Positions 6,376-33,076 of a DNA stretch of 34,316 bases are shown here, piece after piece. Origin of the DNA: an uncultured Gammaproteobacteria bacterium (lineage in GTDB: Bacteria; Pseudomonadota; Gammaproteobacteria; Magnimaribacterales; Magnimaribacteraceae); contig CAJWIK010000003.1 in the NCBI GenBank assembly GCA_913042105.1, positions 1 through 34,316 of the forward strand, read 5' to 3'. Each line of letters opens with the position of its first letter. The stretch's first letter is position 1. The translations under genes and the position numbers were made by a program. Below the pieces are notes generated by a model. That model was not told the DNA's origin, searched no databases, and saw only the letters and a program-made list of their open reading frames with translations.

Positions 6376-6467
6376 ATATAAGTTAATCATATAGTAAATC
6401 TTATGAAGGTGTATATTCCAAAAGTTAAAAAAAAGAGTTAGAGTAAGGCTAATAATTGGGGAAATTA

Positions 6468-8678
6468 ATGAAGAATAAAATCTACTTTTTAGTATTTGCA
6501 CTAGCGATAATTATTTCTGGTTGTAGTAATTCCGAGGAAGAGACTATTGCTGAAAAATCTATTAATTCAGGATCTTCGTCTATAGGTCTAATAGATGATG
6601 ACAGAATATTATCTGCAGAATCTGAACCTGGAAATTGGTTAGCCTATGGAAGGACTTACGAAGAACAAAGATTCTCCCCTCTAGAGCAAATCAATAAAGA
6701 AACAATAGGTGATTTAGGACTAGTTTGGTCTAAAGATATGGGTACTAACAGAGCACTCGAAGCTACTCCAATAGTCGTTGATGGAATAATGTTTTTTACA
6801 AGTACCTGGAGCAGAGTTTATGCGGTTGATGCTTTGACAGGAGAAACAATCTGGAAATTTGATCCAAAAGTTCCCGGAGAATGGGCAAGAAAAGCCTGTT
6901 GTGACATTGTGAATAGAGGTGTTGCGGTATACAACGGTAAAGTTTATTCCGCTAGTCTTGATGGAAGGCTTTTTGCTTTGAATGCTGAAAATGGAGAACT
7001 GGTTTGGGAAGTAGATACAATAATTGACAGGACAAGAGCCTATACAATAACAGGGGCTCCAAGAGTCGCAAAAGGAAAGGTATATATTGGAAATGGTGGA
7101 GCTGAATATGGCGTAAGAGGATATGTTACAGCATATGACTCAGAGAGCGGGAATCAAGTCTGGAGATTTTATACTGTACCTGGCAATCCTGATTTAGGAT
7201 TTGAAGATCCAGCAATGGAAATGGCTGCAAAAACCTGGAAAGGCACTAATTGGTGGGAGTTTGGTGGAGGCGGAACAGTATGGAATTCAATAGTTTTTGA
7301 TCCTGATTTTAATAATTTATATCTAGGGGTTGGAAATGGGTCTCCATGGACAAGGGAAATAAGATCTCCTGGTGGAGGTGATAATTTATTTCTTTCCTCA
7401 ATAGTTGCTGTAGATGCAGATACAGGTGTTTATAAATGGCATTACCAAACCACACCTGAAGATAACTGGGATTACACAGCTGTACAAGATATGTCTCTAG
7501 CTGACATGGAAATAGACGGAGAAATGAAAAAGGTTTTACTCCAAGCTCCAAAAAATGGCTTCTTTTATGTCATCGATAGAATGAATGGTAAAGTTCTTCG
7601 AGCTCATCCTTTTGCAGCAGTTACTTGGGCGACTCATGTAGATCTTGAGACTGGAAGACCGGTTGAAAATCCAGAAGTTGACTATACAGAAAATGGTGCT
7701 TGGGTGTTACCAGGTCCTTTAGGTGCCCATAATTGGCAGGCCATGTCGATCGACATTGATGCTGGGTTAGCTTACATACCTACACAAGAAAATGCTTTTT
7801 TCTATGCAATACAGGAAGACTACAAAAAAACGGGTGTCTATAAAAGGGATCCGGGAAGATGGAATATGGGCATAGAAATGAGCTCGTTAGCTCAAAATAT
7901 TCTAAATAATCTAGAGTCACAGCCTAAACCCGGAGGCTTTCTAAAAGCCTTTGATCCCCTTACAGGTGAAACAAAATGGTCAGTGCCTATTCCACATTAC
8001 TGGAATGGTGGAGTCCTTGGTACAGCTGGTGGATTAGTATTCCAAGGAGATGCATTAGGAATGTTTTCTGCCTACGATAAAGAAACAGGTGAAAGGCTTT
8101 GGGAATTCAACACATACACCTCAATGCTTGCTCCTCCCATCACTTTTGAAATTGATGGTGAACAATATGTATCAATCCTGACTGGCTCTGGTGGTGGTGA
8201 TATGTTCGGTGGGGAACCTTTACCGCCTATAGAGGTACAAGCCTCTCTAACTTATAATAATTTTGGAAGAATGCTTACTTTCAAGCTTGGGGGTGAAAAA
8301 ACTCTCCCTATTCCAAATGTAAGGGATAAAACAATTCCTGAACAGAAACTAGTGCAAGTTAGCATTGATCAAATGCAAAATGGAGAAGGCAACTACAATG
8401 ATTATTGTGCAGTTTGTCACGGATTTATTGTTAAATCTGCTGGCGGTATACCTGACTTAAGGAAAATGTCTGCTGGTACACATGATGCATTTAATCAAAT
8501 TGTTTTAGAAGGCCTGCTTGCAAGTAATGGTATGGCGTCATTTTCAGATGTTCTTTCTGAACAGGAAGTAGAAAATATTCATCATTATGTCAAAGCAAGA
8601 GCTCATGAAGATAGAGAAGTGGCTCTTGGTAATTTGGAAGCTCCTCAATTTACTTGGTTTGGACAAGAAGAGGATTAG
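6468..8678 (+). CDS. PQQ-dependent alcohol dehydrogenase with C-terminal cytochrome c (quinohemoprotein), lipoprotein
   Basis: Periplasmic alcohol dehydrogenase using PQQ and passing electrons to its own heme c. I start at ATG 6468 (736 aa; GGGGAAA upstream) rather than TTG 6456. The signal ends in the lipobox IISGC (Cys19), so the enzyme should be membrane-anchored. Propeller repeats follow, such as VYAVDALTGETIWKFD and LFALNAENGELVWEVD. KACCDIVNRG contains the vicinal Cys144-Cys145 pair that caps PQQ. PEDNWDYTA holds the expected catalytic aspartate, and AHNWQAMSID is a further propeller signature. CAVCH (Cys647, Cys650, His651) binds heme, and Met in NGMASF is the likely sixth ligand. Length fits type II quinohemoprotein dehydrogenases. 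No PQQ synthesis genes are in the window. Confidence 0.93.
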   Translation: MKNKIYFLVFALAIIISGCSNSEEETIAEKSINSGSSSIGLIDDDRILSAESEPGNWLAYGRTYEEQRFSPLEQINKETIGDLGLVWSKDMGTNRALEATPIVVDGIMFFTSTWSRVYAVDALTGETIWKFDPKVPGEWARKACCDIVNRGVAVYNGKVYSASLDGRLFALNAENGELVWEVDTIIDRTRAYTITGAPRVAKGKVYIGNGGAEYGVRGYVTAYDSESGNQVWRFYTVPGNPDLGFEDPAMEMAAKTWKGTNWWEFGGGGTVWNSIVFDPDFNNLYLGVGNGSPWTREIRSPGGGDNLFLSSIVAVDADTGVYKWHYQTTPEDNWDYTAVQDMSLADMEIDGEMKKVLLQAPKNGFFYVIDRMNGKVLRAHPFAAVTWATHVDLETGRPVENPEVDYTENGAWVLPGPLGAHNWQAMSIDIDAGLAYIPTQENAFFYAIQEDYKKTGVYKRDPGRWNMGIEMSSLAQNILNNLESQPKPGGFLKAFDPLTGETKWSVPIPHYWNGGVLGTAGGLVFQGDALGMFSAYDKETGERLWEFNTYTSMLAPPITFEIDGEQYVSILTGSGGGDMFGGEPLPPIEVQASLTYNNFGRMLTFKLGGEKTLPIPNVRDKTIPEQKLVQVSIDQMQNGEGNYNDYCAVCHGFIVKSAGGIPDLRKMSAGTHDAFNQIVLEGLLASNGMASFSDVLSEQEVENIHHYVKARAHEDREVALGNLEAPQFTWFGQEED

Positions 8679-14368: not shown

Positions 14369-15148
14369 CTACATTTTATACCAGTCTAGATAAGAGCCCA
14401 TGATTTCTGAGAATTCTTTTTTCTTAGAAAGTGTCTTCAGATGAGAAAAACACAATGGATAGTCTGTTTGGAAACTATGACTAATGGGAACGAGATCAAC
14501 TTTCTTGAGAGCTTCTACATAATGACCTTCTCTTAAAAATTGTGATAACTCACAAACAAAGGAAATATCAGCTATCGTCAATTCATTACCAACTATAAAA
14601 TTCGATACCGACAGAGCCTCTTCCACGCCATTGAGATAAAACTCATAAGCTTCTTTCATTCTCTTGTAAGTCGAGTTAAGTACATCATCCATCTCTAATA
14701 GATAAACTTGGAATTCTCTCGAAAAAACCAAATTGACGTCTAAAAAGCTATCTATTCTTGATTGAAGACTTATGTTCTTTCCCCCATATAGTGAAGAATC
14801 TTTACTTTGTCTAGCAACAGCTCTCAAAATACTATTGGATTCGAAAACACCCATTCTTTCATCACCTACGAATGCTGCAGGCACTGTTCCAAATGGATGT
14901 TCTTTGATAAAACTGTCAGTTTTGTAAAGATGACCTTCAAAACCTCTCTTCCCTTTCCTTTTAAAAGAATCGAGCTCTAATTTTTCTTCATCGGATATAA
15001 GCCGTGCATCAAAGTCCCATAACCATTTTGATAATTCTTTTGGTTTATCACCTATTACTTCAATTTTTACACCAGCAAGTTTTGCAGTTATAAGTGATTT
15101 CCAAACTCTAGGATTTGGAAGATAAGAAAATATCCTTATTTTTGACAA
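14369..15148 (-). CDS. glutathione S-transferase-like protein
   Basis: 259-aa GST-fold protein, less canonical than its neighbour. The N-terminal part starts SKIRIFSYLPNPRVWKSLITAKLAG, and GTVPAAFVGDERMGVFESNSILR carries the cis-Pro and Glu-Ser glutathione contacts. A helical C-terminal domain includes VGNELTIADISFVCELSQFL with the N-capping motif (TIADISF). An insertion of about 30 residues separates the two halves of the thioredoxin-like domain. The start codon is TTG (15148), 3 nt after the previous stop, and no ATG start fits. It may be EF1B-gamma-like in its N-terminal part. Enzymatic activity is not certain. Confidence 0.8.
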   Translation of the reverse strand: MSKIRIFSYLPNPRVWKSLITAKLAGVKIEVIGDKPKELSKWLWDFDARLISDEEKLELDSFKRKGKRGFEGHLYKTDSFIKEHPFGTVPAAFVGDERMGVFESNSILRAVARQSKDSSLYGGKNISLQSRIDSFLDVNLVFSREFQVYLLEMDDVLNSTYKRMKEAYEFYLNGVEEALSVSNFIVGNELTIADISFVCELSQFLREGHYVEALKKVDLVPISHSFQTDYPLCFSHLKTLSKKKEFSEIMGSYLDWYKM

Positions 15149-15151
15149 ATC

Positions 15152-15763
15152 TTATTGAGTCTCAATAGCCTTCTTAAAAGCAGGACGACTTTCAATTTTT
15201 TCTACATATGATTTTATGTTGCTCATTTCATCAGAAACGCAACCCAATCTATTACTCATAAAACAAGAATGCCCCAACATAATATCTGCACCCGAGAAAT
15301 CACCAATTAGATAATCCTTACCCTCAAGATCTTCATTAACTGGTTTTAAAGCATTAGCAAGAAGCCTCTGAGCTTGTCCTAAGACCGTTTCATCTCTTCT
15401 TTCAGGAGGGAGAATAATAGTATGAACAACTATTGTGTTCATTGGTGGCATAACCATACCTTCGCAATAATGAAACCATTGAAGATATTTAGCAAAATGT
15501 TCAGAATCAACAGAAGGCTTTAATCCACCATTTTTATGTTTTTCAAGAATATAGTCTGTTATGGCTCCAGATTCCCAGATTTGTGTGTCGCCATCTTCAA
15601 GGACAGGTACTCTGCCTAGTGGATGTCTAGCTCTATGCTCATCTGACTTTAGATCCGTAGGGCTAAATGCCATGTTGTTGAGTTCATAAGGCAATTCAAG
15701 CTCTTCAAGCAACCAAAGAATCCTTCCGGCTCTTGAGTTTGGTGCAAAATGCAGTTTTAACAT
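15152..15763 (-). CDS. glutathione S-transferase
   Basis: 203-aa cytoplasmic GST. The thioredoxin-like half holds LHFAPNSRAGRILWLLEELELPYE, LGRVPVLEDGDTQIWESGAI (cis-Pro and Glu-Ser that bind glutathione). The helical half contains YLIGDFSGADIMLG, with the N-capping box region FSGADI. First gene of the eleven-gene run: the - strand reads AAAGGAGAG ahead of the ATG, preceded by a perfect TATAAT. Conjugation, isomerisation or peroxidase activity cannot be told apart from the sequence. Confidence 0.9.
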   Translation of the reverse strand: MLKLHFAPNSRAGRILWLLEELELPYELNNMAFSPTDLKSDEHRARHPLGRVPVLEDGDTQIWESGAITDYILEKHKNGGLKPSVDSEHFAKYLQWFHYCEGMVMPPMNTIVVHTIILPPERRDETVLGQAQRLLANALKPVNEDLEGKDYLIGDFSGADIMLGHSCFMSNRLGCVSDEMSNIKSYVEKIESRPAFKKAIETQ

Positions 15764-18112: not shown

Positions 18113-18880
18113 TTAAGCAGTGAATCCTCCATCAATCATATGAACGGAACCAGTTATGAATTTACTCTCGTCACCGGATAGAAATAATAGTAAATTTGCT
18201 ATTTCTATTGGTTCTGCATATCTCTTTAATGGAATTGTTTGTTCAATCTGAGTTTTAGGATTATCTTCTTCATTTAATTCATTCATGCCATCTTCCAAAA
18301 CTCTCATCATATTGGTTTCTACAGGAGAAGGGTTTACAGAATTAACTCGAATATTCATATCTGCACATTCTTTTGCAGCAGACTTGATCAAGCCTACTAC
18401 GGCATGTTTGCTCATAACATAGGGCGATAAAAGTGAAGCACCCGTAACACCAGCAACGCTTGAAGTTACAACGAAGCTTCCTCCTCCTCTTTCACTCATA
18501 TGCGGAATGGCTGCTTTAAGACCTAAAAATGGACCTTTGGCATTAACCGCCATTACCTTATCAAAAGTTTCTTCATCATATTCAGTTATTGGTTGTACAT
18601 CTCCAGCCACTCCTGCATTTGCAATGAATACATCTAAACCTCCATGTCGCTCAATAGCCAATTCCACAGCCCTTTTATTATCTGCAAGGATGCTTACGTC
18701 TCCTTGAAAGTAACTTAATTTATTAGAATTAATTTTATTTGATACTTCTATCAAGGCGTCTTCATTAAGGTCCACCATGACAACATTTGCACCTTCGTTG
18801 ATAAACAACTCAACAGCGGCCCTGCCAATACCACCAGTGGCTCCAGTAATAATTACAACTTTATCTTCTAATCTTTTCAT
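18113..18880 (-). CDS. short-chain dehydrogenase/reductase (SDR)
   Basis: Classical SDR with NAD(P) motif TGATGGIG, NAGVAG, catalytic Ser in VVTSSVAG and YVMSK. The acidic residue after strand 2 (VMVDLNEDA) suggests NAD rather than NADP. The track extends to 18916, but that region overlaps the TauE gene stop. I start at ATG 18880 (MKRLEDKVVIITG), preceded by TGAGAG; length 255 aa. C-terminal FITGSVHMIDGGFTA is normal. Located between the TauE-like exporter and photolyase. Substrate unknown. Confidence 0.92.
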   Translation of the reverse strand: MKRLEDKVVIITGATGGIGRAAVELFINEGANVVMVDLNEDALIEVSNKINSNKLSYFQGDVSILADNKRAVELAIERHGGLDVFIANAGVAGDVQPITEYDEETFDKVMAVNAKGPFLGLKAAIPHMSERGGGSFVVTSSVAGVTGASLLSPYVMSKHAVVGLIKSAAKECADMNIRVNSVNPSPVETNMMRVLEDGMNELNEEDNPKTQIEQTIPLKRYAEPIEIANLLLFLSGDESKFITGSVHMIDGGFTA

Positions 18881-18908
18881 ATGTCTCTCAATGGGAGTCT
18901 TTCTCTTA

Positions 18909-19667
18909 TCACACAAGCAGATAAAGACCTCTGATTATAAATAGGGCTCCTACAGACAGGATTATGATTTGTGTCCATCGGAAAAAAATTTCATCATCTA
19001 TTATATCTAAAACTCTCTTTCCTAGAGTAGTTCCTATTACAGAAAGTACAACTGCTGTTGCTAACAATAAAGGATCAGGCCAGTTTTCGAAATTGAAAGA
19101 GATAATCAAACCTCCAAAGAAGACTATTTTAGAAATATGGCCAATCGTTTGTGCAACTGCTTTAGTTGCTACTACTTGATGGCGAGTCATTTCTACTCTT
19201 TGAAAGAAAACATCAAGCAATGGACCACCTACTCCAGCAATAAGATTGGTAAAAACGACTACAAAGCCAGCTAAGACTGCTATGGGAGGTTTGGTAATAT
19301 CTAAAGAGATTTCTTTTGGTACTAACCAGGCAATGAAAGGTAAAACGCCAAGTGCAAAAATGACAGTTATCTGATTTGGTTGAAATGCTATAAAGAATAA
19401 AATAATTAAAGAAAGAATACTTCCAAGTAAAAGGCTAGAGATAATCTTCCAATTTATATCATTTCTATTTAACCAAGCCCTATATCCATTTGAAGTTGTC
19501 TGTATGAGACCATGGAGAACCATGGCCGGTGCAACTGGCAGTAAACTTACCAATATCCCCATGAGAATTAATCCACCCAGCATTCCAAAAATAGAAGAGA
19601 GGAAAGCCGTTGCAAAGGTTGCTAGAACAATAATAAGAAAGAAAAGTTCTAACTCTACTTCGAGCAT
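18909..19667 (-). CDS. TauE/SafE family membrane exporter
   Basis: 252-aa integral membrane protein of the TauE/SafE (sulfite/organosulfonate exporter-like) family with about seven or eight helices. Repeated half-domain signature: SSIFGMLGGLILMGIL near the N-terminus and NLIAGVGGPLLDVFF in the second half. The KAVAQTIGHISKIVFFG helix is also typical. Substrates reported for relatives are sulfite, sulfoacetate and other small anions; none can be assigned here. The upstream genes are a class III aminotransferase (15 nt away) and a CmcJ-like oxygenase, so the exporter may remove an anion made by them. Confidence 0.88.
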   Translation of the reverse strand: MLEVELELFFLIIVLATFATAFLSSIFGMLGGLILMGILVSLLPVAPAMVLHGLIQTTSNGYRAWLNRNDINWKIISSLLLGSILSLIILFFIAFQPNQITVIFALGVLPFIAWLVPKEISLDITKPPIAVLAGFVVVFTNLIAGVGGPLLDVFFQRVEMTRHQVVATKAVAQTIGHISKIVFFGGLIISFNFENWPDPLLLATAVVLSVIGTTLGKRVLDIIDDEIFFRWTQIIILSVGALFIIRGLYLLV

Positions 19668-19682
19668 AACTTAAGAAATTTG

Positions 19683-20903
19683 CTATAGGCTATCGAATGC
19701 TTGGCTTGCAGCATTCTCTATAAAATCTATATCTTCGAGACTATGTGCTAAGGATATAAAATGATTATGATAACCAAGCATGTAGACTCCTCGCTTAACG
19801 CACTCATCTATCCATTGAAAGTGAGTTTCAAAACTTACACCTTCGAGTCGATAATAAGGCATAGAAGGGATGCCTGACGCTATTAAATTGAAACCTTTTT
19901 TTTGTGCAACTTGTACCAAGCGATTATTAAGATCTTCTCCATATTGTTTTAGCTTAGAAGGTGCATCCACCTTTTCTAGTTCATTGAGTGTAGCAATAGC
20001 AGCGGCCATTGGCGGAGCGCTAAAGAATTGAGTACCAGTGAAGTAAACTCTCTCTGCAGCTTCTTTTAACTCATTGGTTCCAACCAAAGCAGCCAAAGGA
20101 TGACCATTTGCAATAGCCTTACCAAAACAAATCATATCTGGAGAGAAGCCAAAAGTGACATTTGAGCCTTTCAAATTTATTCTAAATCCAGCTCGCACAT
20201 CATCGACAATAGTTAAGACACCATATTTTTTACATAAACTTGTAACTTTTTTCCAGTAACCATCCTCTGGTAAAGAATTATCTCGGGAAACAGGATGATC
20301 GTAAGGTGAAGATATAAAACACGCTATTTTGTCGCCTTGATCCTGAAGTAAATTTTCCAATTGATCTATATCATTCCATTTTACTTTGAGGATGTGCTGA
20401 TTGTCAGAAGGAATGATTCCTGGTCGACTCTCATCTTGCATCCAAGGAGCTACTCCATGATAGCCGTCATCTATTTTTATTATTTTTTCTTTTTTGGTAA
20501 ATTCTCTGGCTATCATTACTGCCAAGCTAGTTGCGTCACCTCCATTTTTTCCAAAAAGAGCCCAGTCAGCAATATCAATCATATCGACCAATTTTGAAGC
20601 GAGATCAACCATGACTGGAGAGGCAATACTAACAGTATTCCCTTTGTCAGAAGATAACTGAAATGCTTCTTCAACTTCAGGATTATTGTATCCAAGTATC
20701 GAAGGGCCATAACCACACATTAGATCTACATAACGATTGTCATCTAGATCCCAAAAATAAGCTCCTTCAGATTTCGAGAAAAATTTTGGGCCTGAATCTC
20801 TGACGGCGTATTTATAGTGCCCAAAGATTCCTCCTGGTATTACCTCCCTAGCTTTAGAAAGGTATTCATCTGAATTCTTAACTTCGTAGGTAGTATTTTT
20901 CAT
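19683..20903 (-). CDS. class III PLP aminotransferase, glutamate-1-semialdehyde aminomutase-like
   Basis: 406-aa PLP enzyme of the aminotransferase class III fold. VIPGGIFGHYKYA and FWDLDDNRYVDLMCGYGPSILGY resemble GSA aminomutases. GYHG (Tyr148, His149) stacks on PLP, Asp234 in VDDVRAGFR binds the pyridine nitrogen, and Lys262 in CFGKAIANGHPLAAL forms the Schiff base. The common DE pair of the family is DD here. The protein is shorter than and different from true HemL, so I infer an amino donor/acceptor other than GSA. It is 6 nt from the CmcJ-like gene, with which it should act. Confidence 0.88.
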   Translation of the reverse strand: MKNTTYEVKNSDEYLSKAREVIPGGIFGHYKYAVRDSGPKFFSKSEGAYFWDLDDNRYVDLMCGYGPSILGYNNPEVEEAFQLSSDKGNTVSIASPVMVDLASKLVDMIDIADWALFGKNGGDATSLAVMIAREFTKKEKIIKIDDGYHGVAPWMQDESRPGIIPSDNQHILKVKWNDIDQLENLLQDQGDKIACFISSPYDHPVSRDNSLPEDGYWKKVTSLCKKYGVLTIVDDVRAGFRINLKGSNVTFGFSPDMICFGKAIANGHPLAALVGTNELKEAAERVYFTGTQFFSAPPMAAAIATLNELEKVDAPSKLKQYGEDLNNRLVQVAQKKGFNLIASGIPSMPYYRLEGVSFETHFQWIDECVKRGVYMLGYHNHFISLAHSLEDIDFIENAASQAFDSL

Positions 20904-20909
20904 TCGGGT

Positions 20910-21704
20910 TTAATTGAAGAAACAAACTGCTCTTACTTCTATACTCTTTCTTGGTGATGCTCCTTCAGGAGTTTCTGGGTAATCAAACGCACTATGTAAG
21001 GTTGGAATAAAAGGTTGTTCATCAGAATCATATGTTTTAAACATAAGTACTTCATCTTTATTCATTTCTGGATAAAAGTACCATTTATGTGAATCATTAT
21101 GAGATGACTGACAAATTTCAACCGTTAATGCTTCCTCCTGACCGGGAAGATAATTAAATAAATCTGTAGGTATTAATTCTTTTTCAGACACTGTTCTTTT
21201 ATCACATACTGCAAAAGGAGTATCAACTCCGTCTTTATCAAACCTTCTCCAAAGGTTATAAACAATAACTCTTTTTGGTTTGAGGCCAGTCTCTTTTAAA
21301 AAAGGGTCCAGAGTGGAACCGAAGTTAGTAGTGAAATCATTATGGACAAGTCTATGCCCACCTTTTCTTTCTCCAGAATCGGCTTGGGCTTCATTTCTAG
21401 ATATGTGAGAAATAATGTGAACTGTATCTGCCTCTACTTTTTCTTTGACGTAAGTACTCATTTCATCGTAATAAATACGGGCCACTTCTTCGTCATCAAA
21501 AAAATCTTTTACTTGGGATTCATGCTTAATGAGTTCAAAACCGCCCATTGTGATATCAAAATTTGATTCGCGAGCATCATGGACAACCTTTTTATAGGAT
21601 TTATGATCCGGCATACTTTCATCAGGTTCACTAAGTCCAAATGCCGGTTTCGCCTCATTTTCTTTTAGAGGTTTTCTATAATTAAAATCTGCTTCTATAT
21701 TCAT
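20910..21704 (-). CDS. CmcJ/AsaB/NvfI-like oxygenase family protein
   Basis: 264-aa protein resembling the CmcJ/NvfI/AsaB family (distant Fe(II)/2-oxoglutarate oxygenase fold). Family segments visible are VIVYNLWRRFDKDG, DTPFAVCDKRTV, HKWYFYPEMNKDEVLMFKTYDS, HSAFDYPETPEGASPRKSIEVRAVCF. Candidate iron ligands are the histidines in RLVHNDFT and in LHSAFDYP. Members elsewhere modify secondary metabolites or gibberellin-like molecules; activity here is unknown. ATG start without a visible Shine-Dalgarno; the ATG follows a perfect 10-bp inverted repeat by 2 nt. First gene of the block ending at 15820. Confidence 0.82.
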   Translation of the reverse strand: MNIEADFNYRKPLKENEAKPAFGLSEPDESMPDHKSYKKVVHDARESNFDITMGGFELIKHESQVKDFFDDEEVARIYYDEMSTYVKEKVEADTVHIISHISRNEAQADSGERKGGHRLVHNDFTTNFGSTLDPFLKETGLKPKRVIVYNLWRRFDKDGVDTPFAVCDKRTVSEKELIPTDLFNYLPGQEEALTVEICQSSHNDSHKWYFYPEMNKDEVLMFKTYDSDEQPFIPTLHSAFDYPETPEGASPRKSIEVRAVCFFN

Positions 21705-21801: not shown

Positions 21802-23109
21802 CTAAGCACTGTCCCTGTATTCCTTGTATTGCATTGCAGCATTTTTTTCACTCTTCTGATATTGCATAAAGGCCCTAAAAACCCCTAAATCTAGATCTGG
21901 ATCTAAACCTTCCCCCATTCTAATTAGATTGAGACACCAAAAAGCTTGTTGGCCCCATCCGTTAATACCTTTAATGACTGAAAAAGGTGAATTTAGCCCT
22001 AACCAACCAGGGCCGACTTGCATTGTTTTCTCTAAAGTTGGAGTTTCTAATAAATCTTTATCAAGTAGTTTATTTGCAATATCAGAATCAATACAAAAAG
22101 GTCTCGCTATTCCAATGACATCGCATGCATTCTCATTTATAGCATCATTCATACCTTTAGAAGTCCTGAATCCTCCAGTAACCATTAAGGGACCATTGAA
22201 AACATTTCTAATGTCTTTTGCGTAATCTAAGAAATAAGCTTCTCTAGCGATTGTGCTCTCACGTCTTTTTTCAGCCCTTTCAGGGTTAAGACCCATATCT
22301 ATACCAACCAAATGAGGTTGTTCATAAGTACCTCCAGAAATTTCAAGAAGATCTAATCCTTCTTCATTTAACCAAGTAGCAACTTGGATGGCATCTTCAT
22401 GTGAGAATCCACCTTTTTGAAAATCTGCAGAATTTAATTTTAGTGATACTGGAAAATTTACACCTACGGCTTCTCTTACAGCTCTAACTGTTTCCAGTAA
22501 AAATTTTGCTCTCTTTTCTAAAGTTCCACCCCATTCATCCTCTCGTAAATTTATATCAGGTGAAAGAAATTCTGATATTAGATATCCATGAGCTCCATGA
22601 ATTTGAACACCAGTAAATCCAGTGTCTTTAGCTACCCTGGCGCAATGTGCAAATTTCTGAACAATATCTAAAATCTCTTCATGAGCTAAAGCACGAGGTT
22701 TGCCAAATTGAGCTCCAGGCATTTGGAGTTGAACTTCGGAAGGGGCTACAGGAGTCTCTGCAACCGCAGCAGGAGTTTGTCTTCCAGCGTGAGATATTTG
22801 CATCCATAAATGCGTATTATTCTTAGTACCGGCTTCAGCATAGGCGATTAGCCTAGATAATTGTTCATTCGTTTGAGGTCCTTCAATTACTACATTACCC
22901 GGCCTTTCGAGATAACGATGATCAACTTGAACATTGCCAGTTAGTAAGATTCCTGCGCCACCCGCAGACCATCGATCATATAAATTAACATGTTTAGTAG
23001 TGGCTCTATTTTGCTCATCAGCCAATCCTTCGGTCATCGCACCCTTACAAATACGATTTTTTATTTGCGCTCCACAAGGAAGATCAAGTTTGTCTGTTAT
23101 CTCTGACAT
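21802..23109 (-). CDS. NADH:flavin oxidoreductase (Old Yellow Enzyme-like)
   Basis: FMN-dependent ene-reductase or 2,4-dienoyl-CoA reductase-like TIM barrel. I start at ATG 23109 (435 aa), since the track's start at 23130 lies inside the SDR gene. Signature points: LPCGAQIKNRICKGAMTEG, the HLWMQISHAGRQ strand with conserved Gln and His, GVQIHGAHGYLISEFLSPD with the catalytic His, and NLREDEWGGTLEKRAKFLLE. LMVTGGFRTSKG binds the FMN phosphate. The C-terminal extension (about 370-435) lacks the 4Fe-4S Cys cluster of the longer two-domain dienoyl-CoA reductases. Likely reduces an enone or aromatic ring intermediate. 4 nt from the preceding SDR. Confidence 0.92.
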   Translation of the reverse strand: MSEITDKLDLPCGAQIKNRICKGAMTEGLADEQNRATTKHVNLYDRWSAGGAGILLTGNVQVDHRYLERPGNVVIEGPQTNEQLSRLIAYAEAGTKNNTHLWMQISHAGRQTPAAVAETPVAPSEVQLQMPGAQFGKPRALAHEEILDIVQKFAHCARVAKDTGFTGVQIHGAHGYLISEFLSPDINLREDEWGGTLEKRAKFLLETVRAVREAVGVNFPVSLKLNSADFQKGGFSHEDAIQVATWLNEEGLDLLEISGGTYEQPHLVGIDMGLNPERAEKRRESTIAREAYFLDYAKDIRNVFNGPLMVTGGFRTSKGMNDAINENACDVIGIARPFCIDSDIANKLLDKDLLETPTLEKTMQVGPGWLGLNSPFSVIKGINGWGQQAFWCLNLIRMGEGLDPDLDLGVFRAFMQYQKSEKNAAMQYKEYRDSA

Positions 23110-23113
23110 GATT

Positions 23114-23998
23114 TTAGTATTTTTCTCCATCTTCTCTAGAAGAAAAGAATTTAGCCATCTCCTCTTCTGAGTTTCGTCTTATCTCTTTTCTTGAAAGTAT
23201 ATTTTCAAAGTGTGATTTCAAGGAATCATCCCAAGCAGGATGAGACAAAATATAAAAAATATTTTCTTTTATGGCATCAAAAACAATCTCTGCAATTTCT
23301 TCAGGTTTCTTACCTTGGCGGAGCATTGCTGACATAATTTCTGCTCCCATTTCTGGTTTAACCTCTTGAGCCTCTCCTAAATGGCTTGGTCGGTTTCTTT
23401 CAGATTTATCAATATTGGTATCGACAAAACCGGGGCATAAAACTGATGCATTAATTTTTGCTCCTCTAGCAATTAAATCTCTACTTAAACCCTCTGTCAG
23501 AGCCATCACCGCATGTTTACTCACCCCGTAAGTACCGGCGCCTGGAAGTAATCCTGCCATAGAGACTGTGGTCACTACATGCCCTTCTTCGCCATGCTCT
23601 AACATATGAGGAAGAAAAGTTTGTATGCCTTTAAGAACCCCATGATAATTCACTCCCATAACCCAATCCCAATCACGATTCTCAATTTCCCAAATTGCCT
23701 TACTTCCTGAATTAGCACCGATTCCAGCGTTGTTGCATAAGACATGAATATTTCCATACTCTTCGGTCGCCTTTGCAAATAATTCTTTAATTGAATCTTC
23801 TACCAATACATCTGTCTTGATTCCTACAACTCTATGTTGATATTGCCTAAGACTCTCTACTGTTTTTTCTAATGCCTCTTCTTCAATATCAGCCAGAACT
23901 ACTTGCATCTTTTCTTGAGCAAACTTTTCAGCTAAGGCCTTTCCAATTCCACTTGCTGCACCTGTTATGACAGCTGTTTTTCCTTCAAACTCTTTCAT
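23114..23998 (-). CDS. SDR-family oxidoreductase
   Basis: 294-aa classical SDR with TGAASGIG, NNAGIG, a Ser in VVTTVSMAG, and YGVSK. VVLADIEEEALEK suggests NAD. A C-terminal tail of about 60 residues (from KKPEEIAEIVFDAIKEN) is longer than in most SDRs, and is found in SDRs acting on bulky aliphatic or steroid-like substrates. Start ATG 23998 with AAAGGAAT upstream. Between a GST gene (12 nt) and the OYE-like reductase (4 nt). A paired ene-reductase and SDR suggests sequential reduction or oxidation of one substrate. Confidence 0.92.
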   Translation of the reverse strand: MKEFEGKTAVITGAASGIGKALAEKFAQEKMQVVLADIEEEALEKTVESLRQYQHRVVGIKTDVLVEDSIKELFAKATEEYGNIHVLCNNAGIGANSGSKAIWEIENRDWDWVMGVNYHGVLKGIQTFLPHMLEHGEEGHVVTTVSMAGLLPGAGTYGVSKHAVMALTEGLSRDLIARGAKINASVLCPGFVDTNIDKSERNRPSHLGEAQEVKPEMGAEIMSAMLRQGKKPEEIAEIVFDAIKENIFYILSHPAWDDSLKSHFENILSRKEIRRNSEEEMAKFFSSREDGEKY

Positions 23999-24010
23999 TT
24001 TTATATTCCT

Positions 24011-24760
24011 TTAATTTATATTTGCTAGTTTTTTCTGAATAACTATTAAAGCTTTCTTATTGGCACTTATTATAGTTTCCATTGGCGGAGCTTCTTCACT
24101 TATATCACCCAACTCATAAAGAGCAGCATGTATATCGTCATGACAATCTATTTTTTTCATGTCACCAAGCCATCTGCGTATATTTGGATAGTCATCAAAA
24201 TTAAATACATTAGTAAACATGCTTTGTAATTGCCCTATTTCGACATAAGCCGATATATCAGCAATTGTGTAATCGTCTCCAGCCAAAAAAAGTGAATTAG
24301 ACAACCAACCATCTTCTATAGCTTGAAATGCTTTTTTTATAATTGCATTTGAACTTGCTAAAAAATCTTCTGAGAAATTGAGGTCTTTTCTAACTTTCGG
24401 AGCAACTAATCCAATAGAAGCCTCTCTAACATTTCTATGATGGAGGTGAAGATAAGAGTCTATCTTCGCTCTGGCCTCAGCATTACTTGGGTATAAATCA
24501 TTCCAATTATATTTGTTACAGAGGTAACACATGATGGCATGTGATTCCGAGATAACTAATCCCGTTTCTGTGTCCTCAAAACTTGGAATAGTGCCAGTAG
24601 GAAATTTCTTAAGATAATCAGGATGACGACTTCCTCCTTCAGAAGAAGAGCCAGGGTTTATTAGCTTCAATTCAAAAGGGACTTTCTTAATTAGCATCAA
24701 CCACAGAACAGCTCGAACAGGCTGTGAAAAAGGTACTCCATAAATTATTATATTTTTCAT
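24011..24760 (-). CDS. glutathione S-transferase
   Basis: 249-aa GST. N-terminal IIYGVPFSQPVRAVLWLMLIKKVPFELKLIN, with FPTGTIPSFEDTETGLVISESHAIMCYL giving the cis-Pro and Glu-Ser glutathione contacts. The C-terminal domain includes LAGDDYTIADISAYVEIGQL with the TIADIS N-cap. The layout resembles theta-class GSTs. ATG start with GAGAGGATC upstream. Lies between the TPR lipoprotein (19 nt) and the SDR (12 nt). Confidence 0.9.
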   Translation of the reverse strand: MKNIIIYGVPFSQPVRAVLWLMLIKKVPFELKLINPGSSSEGGSRHPDYLKKFPTGTIPSFEDTETGLVISESHAIMCYLCNKYNWNDLYPSNAEARAKIDSYLHLHHRNVREASIGLVAPKVRKDLNFSEDFLASSNAIIKKAFQAIEDGWLSNSLFLAGDDYTIADISAYVEIGQLQSMFTNVFNFDDYPNIRRWLGDMKKIDCHDDIHAALYELGDISEEAPPMETIISANKKALIVIQKKLANIN

Positions 24761-32230: not shown

Positions 32231-33076
32231 CTACAGTTTTATATCGCTAGCATCATGTCTTTCTAAGATTTCCTTATCATCCGGCCCATTAGGCTTTCTG
32301 TTTACCAAAGAACCTCTCTTAAATGCTGGACGCTCTATTATTTGTTTTGCCCATCGACCTAAATGCTTATAAGAATCAACCTCAAGAAATTCCGCTGAAT
32401 CGTAAGCATTATTTAGAACTAAAGTTCCGTACCAAGAGTGAACAGCAATATCCGAAATATTATATTCATCACCACATAAATATTCTCTAGCTTCGAGGTT
32501 CTTATCTAGAAGATCTAGTTGTCGCTTAACCTCCATAGCAAACCTATTTATAGGATATTCGAACTTTTCTGGAGCATAAGCATAAAAATGACCAAAGCCG
32601 CCACCTAAGTAAGGGGCACTACCCATTTGCCAAAATAACCAAGACATACACTCTGCTCTAGCCGAGGGATCTGTTGGAAGAAATTCTCCAAACTTTTCAG
32701 CCAAATAAACCAATATTGCTCCTGATTCAAATACACGAGTTGAAGGATCTGTGCTTGTATCAAGTAATGCAGGTATTTTAGAGTTAGGATTTATGTCTAC
32801 AAAACCACTACTAAATTGTGCGCCCTCTCCAATATTAATTAAAAATGCGTCATATTCAGCCCCTTCATGACCTAAAGCTAAAAGTTCTTCTAATAAAATA
32901 GTTACCTTAATCCCATTAGGGGTACCTAAAGAGTAAAGTTGAAGTGGGTGTTTGCCAACAGGTAATTCCTTTTCGTGAGTGGCCCCTGCAGTAGGTTTAT
33001 TTATATTCGCAAACCTTCCTCCGCTTTCAGTGTCCCAAGTCCAAACCTTAGGTGGTACGTATGTAGAATCACTCAT
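32231..33076 (-). CDS. yghU: YghU-type glutathione S-transferase homolog
   Basis: 281-aa member of the YghU/YfcG (Nu-class) GSTs, which bind two glutathiones and reduce disulfides. Very strong block identity with E. coli YghU: KVWTWDTESGGRFANIN, THEKELPVGKHPLQLYSLGT, PNGIKVTILLEELLALG, PNSKIPALLDTST, YLGGGFGHFYAYAPEKFEYP and the tail NRKPNG-ERHDASD. ATG start with AAGGAG 5 nt upstream. Convergent with the permease (2 nt between stops). Followed by no clear terminator. Confidence 0.95.
   Translation of the reverse strand: MSDSTYVPPKVWTWDTESGGRFANINKPTAGATHEKELPVGKHPLQLYSLGTPNGIKVTILLEELLALGHEGAEYDAFLINIGEGAQFSSGFVDINPNSKIPALLDTSTDPSTRVFESGAILVYLAEKFGEFLPTDPSARAECMSWLFWQMGSAPYLGGGFGHFYAYAPEKFEYPINRFAMEVKRQLDLLDKNLEAREYLCGDEYNISDIAVHSWYGTLVLNNAYDSAEFLEVDSYKHLGRWAKQIIERPAFKRGSLVNRKPNGPDDKEILERHDASDIKL

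What the first reader, a model, noticed from the sequence alone, without database searches (positions are those of the whole stretch)
18909..21704. Oxygenase, aminotransferase and TauE-type exporter as a possible small pathway
A CmcJ/NvfI-like oxygenase, a class III PLP enzyme with a DD rather than DE pair, and a TauE/SafE exporter follow each other with gaps of 6 and 15 nt. They could oxidise an amine-containing compound, move the amino group, and export a small anion such as sulfite or a sulfonate.
Basis: inference. Interest (0 to 1): 0.5.

Follow-up and report, generated by a model that had tools for sequence, protein, structure and literature searches.

The report
FumI-like aminotransferase in marine SAR86
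Three intact genes sit side by side in a marine SAR86 bacterium (an iron oxygenase, an aminotransferase related to a fumonisin-deaminating enzyme, and a TauE-type transporter), but they are not a conserved three-step pathway, because the transporter became the aminotransferase's neighbour only after the genes between them were lost in this species.

Summary
The three genes are real, intact and under purifying selection. Minus-strand order is oxygenase, aminotransferase (AT), TauE, with gaps of 6 and 15 nt, in a SAR86 draft genome.

The AT is not HemL. Its closest solved relative is FumI (6hbs, 37% identity), which deaminates hydrolysed fumonisin B1. FumI and most of its relatives share the "odd" DD pair. 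HemL's C-terminal Glu is absent, and these SAR86 families make ALA with ALA synthase.

The oxygenase is an ordinary CmcJ/NvfI-family Fe(II)/2-oxoglutarate enzyme with an intact HxD...H...R centre.

The pathway reading largely fails. Oxygenase and AT are adjacent only in one genus. In 12 of 12 sister genomes spanning the site, a PhoD-like gene (in 9 also a GST) lies between AT and TauE; the window species lost them, and its closest relative still keeps a GST stub. Nothing points to sulfite or sulfonate.

Best explanation: a SAR86 FumI-type transaminase deaminates an amine, possibly a vicinal amino alcohol, onto a keto acid; the oxygenase is a genus-level operon partner. The substrate is unknown. 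New member of known families; low to moderate interest.

The parts
20910..21704 (-). CmcJ/NvfI-family Fe(II)/2-oxoglutarate oxygenase, 264 aa; predicted iron ligands H121, D123, H237 and 2OG-binding R258
   Evidence: NCBIfam NF041278 211.6 bits; PDB NvfI E 3e-19; metal and 2OG residues conserved in all SAR86 copies aligned and in NvfI
19683..20903 (-). FumI-type class III PLP aminotransferase, 406 aa; predicted PLP lysine K262, pyridine-N aspartate D234, DD pair D234/D235
   Evidence: PDB 6hbs FumI 287 bits vs best HemL 157 bits; tree; alignment
18909..19667 (-). TauE/SafE-family membrane transporter, 252 aa, substrate unknown
   Evidence: Pfam PF01925 61 bits; no PDB hit
19668..19682 (-). 15-nt AT-TauE junction: site where a PhoD-like gene (about 1.6 kb) and a GST gene were lost in this species
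   Evidence: Nucleotide comparison with L064 and neighbourhoods of 12 sister genomes; PhoD-like gene absent from the rest of G000
18113..18916 (-). SDR oxidoreductase downstream of TauE; TauE-SDR order conserved in genera g1 and g4
   Evidence: Pfam adh_short_C2 196 bits; neighbourhoods
21802..23130 (-). Old-yellow-enzyme-type FMN oxidoreductase upstream of the oxygenase (97-nt gap)
   Evidence: Pfam Oxidored_FMN 175 bits
23114..23998 (-). SDR oxidoreductase in the same run
   Evidence: Pfam adh_short 168 bits; NCBIfam PRK06194 over cut-off
24011..24760 (-). Glutathione S-transferase-like gene; its homologues lie near the oxygenase in other SAR86 genera too
   Evidence: Pfam GST_N_3; neighbourhood clustering

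Best explanation
The core is a FumI-type class III PLP transaminase of the SAR86 clade. It most likely removes the amino group of a primary amine, by analogy with FumI a 2-amino-3-hydroxy (vicinal amino alcohol) compound, onto pyruvate or another keto acid, giving a ketone plus an amino acid (inferred). In one genus it probably shares a transcript with a CmcJ/NvfI-family Fe(II)/2OG oxygenase beside OYE, SDR and GST genes, so the two may belong to one catabolic or detoxifying module there (inferred from the 4-7 nt spacing in every g1 genome seen). Elsewhere in SAR86 the AT occurs without an adjacent oxygenase or TauE. The TauE gene became its neighbour by stepwise loss of a PhoD-like and a GST gene in the window species (supported by comparison). 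The AT's relatives, the gene order and the missing genes are shown; substrate, reaction and direction are inferred.
For: Nearest PDB chain is FumI, E 1.5e-84, far ahead of HemL at 7e-45. The ML tree separates AT plus FumI-type sequences from HemL with 100/100 support; the SAR86 ATs form one clade, 100/100. DDVRAGFR is shared with FumI and most relatives. The AT is in 54 of 121 genomes of the order and in none of 317 other gammaproteobacterial genomes sampled at E 1e-60. Oxygenase-AT gap is 4-7 nt in all 14 sister loci measured. PhoD-like gene between AT and TauE in 12 of 12 sister genomes; GST stub in L064. AT neighbours in other SAR86 genera fit amine or amide catabolism: penicillin-amidase-type acylase (g2, g4), amidase (g2), choline-dehydrogenase-like GMC (f3). 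ThDP enzymes that could in principle cleave a hydroxyketone lie beside the AT in L088 and L089 and near it in Agrobacterium and Shinella.
Against: Identity to FumI is 37%, too low to transfer a substrate. Relatives at this distance sit beside many different transporters and kinases. The amino-alcohol idea rests on FumI and on ThDP neighbours outside SAR86; no ThDP enzyme was recognised within about 8 kb of the SAR86 AT. AlphaFold models were too poor to compare active sites. AT neighbours change between SAR86 genera, so context is a weak guide.
Confidence: 0.55

Rival explanations
1. One reading: oxygenase, AT and TauE act in sequence on an amine, with export of sulfite or a sulfonate.
For: Tight packing on one strand; TauE follows within a few genes of the AT in genera g1 and g4.
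Against: AT-TauE contact unique to the window species; TauE orthologue in only 5 of 37 AT-bearing genomes outside g1; no sulfonate gene recognised among the neighbours scanned; the TauE family is functionally mixed (own knowledge).
Confidence: 0.07
2. The AT is a divergent HemL (glutamate-1-semialdehyde aminomutase) or a HemL substitute in genomes without canonical HemL.
For: HemL models are its best NCBIfam hits; no protein passes the hemL cut-off in four near-complete SAR86 genomes tested.
Against: The AT-bearing families have ALA synthase and no glutamyl-tRNA reductase over cut-off, so no sign of a glutamate semialdehyde route; the HemL C-terminal Glu (FEAGF) is replaced by HN (YHNHF); separate clade in the tree.
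Confidence: 0.03
3. The AT is biosynthetic: it installs an amino group on a keto precursor of a small molecule, and the oxygenase, as in fungal and cephamycin pathways, tailors it.
For: CmcJ, NvfI and EfuI are natural-product enzymes (family name; PMC8292354); transaminases are reversible.
Against: No PKS, NRPS or terpene synthase recognised among the neighbours scanned; streamlined 1.3-Mb genome; neighbours are catabolic-type genes.
Confidence: 0.12
4. Oxygenase and AT are chance neighbours without a shared substrate, packed together by genome streamlining.
For: They are unlinked in f3 and in f1 genera g4, g5 and g6; each occurs without the other (9 AT-only and 5 oxygenase-only genomes); GSTs, not the AT, are the recurrent neighbours of the oxygenase.
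Against: Adjacency with 4-7 nt gaps kept across genus g1; both genes are largely restricted to the same two SAR86 families (45 genomes hold both).
Confidence: 0.23

Closest known systems
FumI, aminopentol aminotransferase of Sphingopyxis sp. MTA144 (PDB 6hbs; PMC2933618)
   Same: Same class III subfamily; DDVRAGFR motif; HN near the C-terminus; alignment over almost the whole length.
   Different: 37% identity; different genome context; no fum cluster seen beside it; substrate unknown.
HemL, glutamate-1-semialdehyde 2,1-aminomutase
   Same: Class III PLP fold, next closest in PDB and NCBIfam.
   Different: About 30% identity; DE instead of DD; C-terminal Glu missing; separate clade; the organism's families use ALA synthase.
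NvfI, endoperoxide-forming Fe(II)/2OG oxygenase (PDB 7de2; PMC8292354)
   Same: Same CmcJ/NvfI/EfuI family; HxD...H...R centre.
   Different: Fungal meroterpenoid enzyme at E 3e-19; no reason to expect the same substrate.
TauE/SafE transporters (PF01925)
   Same: Pfam match over cut-off.
   Different: Weakest of three TauE-family proteins in this draft genome (61 against 163 and 119 bits); no tie to sulfite or sulfonates.

Membership tests
FumI-type class III aminotransferase | Nearest relationship to FumI, apart from HemL | tested here: met
   PDB ranking and ML tree, 100/100 split from HemL
FumI-type class III aminotransferase | PLP lysine, pyridine-N Asp and DDVRxGFR motif | tested here: met
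   K262, D234, DDVRAGFR
FumI-type class III aminotransferase | Deaminates hydrolysed fumonisin B1 with pyruvate | not testable with these tools
   Needs an enzyme assay; the FumI reaction is from PMC2933618
HemL (GSAM) | Score over the curated hemL cut-off (527 bits) | tested here: not met
   207.8 bits
HemL (GSAM) | C-terminal active-site Glu (FEAGF) | tested here: not met
   YHNHF in its place
HemL (GSAM) | Works with glutamyl-tRNA reductase | tested here: not met
   f1 and f3 genomes tested have ALA synthase and no GluTR over cut-off
CmcJ/NvfI-family Fe(II)/2OG oxygenase | Curated family score | tested here: met
   211.6 bits vs cut-off 80
CmcJ/NvfI-family Fe(II)/2OG oxygenase | HxD...H iron triad and 2OG-binding Arg | tested here: met
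   Conserved in all SAR86 copies aligned and in NvfI
CmcJ/NvfI-family Fe(II)/2OG oxygenase | Double-stranded beta-helix fold | tested here: inconclusive
   AlphaFold model mean pLDDT 35, not usable
TauE/SafE exporter | PF01925 over cut-off | tested here: met
   61.3 vs 32.6 bits
TauE/SafE exporter | Exports sulfite or a sulfonate | not testable with these tools
   No linked sulfonate gene recognised; no solved relative found
Conserved three-gene pathway | Oxygenase, AT and TauE adjacent across species | tested here: not met

The most novel reading that the evidence does not exclude
An abundant group of ocean bacteria carries, across two of its families, a FumI-type transaminase for vicinal amino alcohols such as sphingoid-base-like lipids. 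Neighbouring acylase, PhoD-like phosphoesterase, GMC and oxygenase genes would prepare or process the substrate, making an unrecognised route for marine amine or sphingolipid nitrogen.
Probability: 0.12. Interest if true: 0.5.

Novelty: new member of a known kind. Interest (0 to 1): 0.22.

Why it matters
The finding corrects a tempting operon reading: adjacency in one genome came from gene loss. It also gives the aminotransferase a better label (FumI-type instead of HemL-like) in SAR86. If the FumI-like substrate class holds, it would point to use of amino alcohols or amino lipids by surface-ocean bacteria.

Tried and rejected
HemL substitute hypothesis: raised because four near-complete SAR86 genomes lack HemL over cut-off, dropped because the AT-bearing families have ALA synthase and no GluTR over cut-off. 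AlphaFold models of AT and oxygenase: mean pLDDT 53 and 35, so no fold search was run. Solved structures for the PhoD-like and TauE proteins: no hit. AT search in samples of the rest of the class and phylum: no close relative outside SAR86; seven genomes with 35-40% identical proteins in the phylum sample. Promoter and terminator scan: no more sites than in shuffles. Papers on SAR86 aminotransferases: no title or abstract about them among the hits.

Full report
OBSERVATION. Family searches confirm all three labels. The genes are under purifying selection: dN/dS 0.016, 0.009 and 0.096 against L064. The window is contig C3 of a 1.32-Mb draft genome, 75% complete; its closest named relatives are SAR86 cluster MAGs and single-cell genomes.

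AMINOTRANSFERASE. Against solved structures the best match is FumI, the aminopentol aminotransferase of Sphingopyxis (6hbs, 287 bits, E 1.5e-84); the best HemL has 157 bits. FumI moves the 2-amino group of hydrolysed fumonisin B1 to pyruvate (PMC2933618). A maximum-likelihood tree of 35 proteins places all FumI-type sequences apart from HemL (100/100), with the SAR86 proteins as one clade (100/100) whose nearest outside relatives are from a Desulfobacterales and a Propionibacteriaceae MAG (98/98; 47% identity). The PLP lysine, the pyridine-N aspartate and the Tyr-His-Gly motif are intact; the C-terminal Glu typical of HemL is replaced by HN, as in FumI (the role of that Glu is from general knowledge).

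NOT HEML. Four near-complete SAR86 genomes have no protein over the hemL cut-off, which raised the idea that this AT replaces HemL. It does not hold: in the window's genome and in the seven other f1 and f3 genomes tested, ALA synthase is present over cut-off and glutamyl-tRNA reductase is not. The four f2 and f4 genomes tested show the reverse.

OXYGENASE. It matches the CmcJ/NvfI/EfuI family over cut-off and NvfI in the PDB. The predicted iron ligands (H121, D123, H237) and the 2OG arginine (R258) are the same in every SAR86 copy aligned and in NvfI. The NvfI paper names residues 135, 137 and 250 as its iron ligands (PMC8292354). The substrate cannot be inferred from the family.

NEIGHBOURHOODS. 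Across 121 genomes of the window's order the AT is in 54, the oxygenase in 50 and the TauE orthologue (E below 1e-100) in 22. Oxygenase and AT co-occur in 45, but both are confined to families f1 and f3, so shared ancestry explains much of the association; the Fisher values do not correct for this. They are adjacent only in genus g1, with gaps of 4-7 nt in 14 sister loci. In g4, g5 and g6 they are on different contigs, and in f3 genomes where both are on one contig they lie about 58-71 kb apart (coordinates). Four g2 genomes have the AT and no oxygenase found. The recurrent neighbours of the oxygenase across genera are GST-type genes homologous to window 24011-24760 and 32231-33076. AT neighbours differ by genus: an acylase of the penicillin-amidase family and a DAPG-hydrolase-like protein (g4); acylase, amidase and a second aminotransferase (g2); a choline-dehydrogenase-like GMC enzyme (most f3).

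THE AT-TauE CONTACT IS A LOSS. In 12 of 12 sister genomes with sequence across the site, a protein of about 531 aa with a twin-arginine (RRxFLK) start and a weak PhoD-like phosphatase match (19.9 bits, below the Pfam cut-off of 27) lies between AT and TauE; in 9 of 12 a GST-like gene follows it. (An earlier notebook entry says 8 of 12; the count is 9.) L064, whose AT is 99.8% identical to the window's, has the PhoD-like gene and a stub of the GST start (MKLLNTDIRISPKYIKLI) just before TauE. The window has neither; the break falls right after the AT stop codon, and the PhoD-like gene was not found elsewhere in the draft genome, which is 75% complete. The simplest history is stepwise loss. An assembly join is not excluded by these data.

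MECHANISM. Most likely: a PLP transaminase that deaminates an amine, possibly a vicinal amino alcohol, to a ketone. For the amino-alcohol idea: FumI's substrate has 2-amino-3-hydroxy groups; ThDP enzymes able in principle to cleave hydroxyketones lie beside the nearest AT relatives (split transketolase in L088; a similar gene in L089) and near the AT in Agrobacterium and Shinella. Against it: no such enzyme was recognised within about 8 kb in SAR86, and 35-40% relatives have varied contexts. The oxygenase is a plausible partner in genus g1 only. TauE's role is open; sulfite or sulfonate export has no support beyond the family name.

VERDICT. The families are known; the AT is better labelled FumI-type. 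The three-gene pathway is not supported. Interest 0.22.

Noticed in passing
Genomes G000 (G000:C12:3703-4905), G005, G012, G015, G024, G036, G039, G042 (f1, f3) versus G035, G038, G037, G040 (f2, f4): SAR86 families appear split in ALA synthesis: f1 and f3 have ALA synthase and no glutamyl-tRNA reductase over cut-off; the f2 and f4 genomes tested have glutamyl-tRNA reductase and no ALA synthase over cut-off. ALA synthase is unusual for gammaproteobacteria (own knowledge).
   Followed up: partly
L088:5701-7637, L089:4462-5472: FumI-type aminotransferases of a Desulfobacterales and a Propionibacteriaceae MAG are followed by transketolase-type genes (split N and C parts in L088), suggesting an AT-plus-ketol-cleavage module.
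   Followed up: partly
L094:9531-12516 (g4), L098:1290-7766 (g2): Penicillin-amidase-type acylase next to the AT, with a DAPG-hydrolase-like protein in g4 and an amidase plus a second aminotransferase in g2.
   Followed up: partly
G077:C1:183296-184873: The PhoD-like protein of genus g1 has a 70% identical homologue in one f2 genome that has no AT match, suggesting horizontal transfer.
   Followed up: no
window 18113-18916: The listed TTG start of the SDR overlaps the end of TauE; the ATG at 18880 (255 aa, the length of most orthologues) is the likelier start.
   Followed up: partly
window 14369-15148, 15152-15763, 24011-24760, 32231-33076: Three GST-family genes, plus one (14369-15148) without a Pfam hit that looks GST-like, in one 34-kb window.
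   Followed up: no
window 6456-8678: PQQ-type alcohol dehydrogenase with a C-terminal cytochrome c domain.
   Followed up: no
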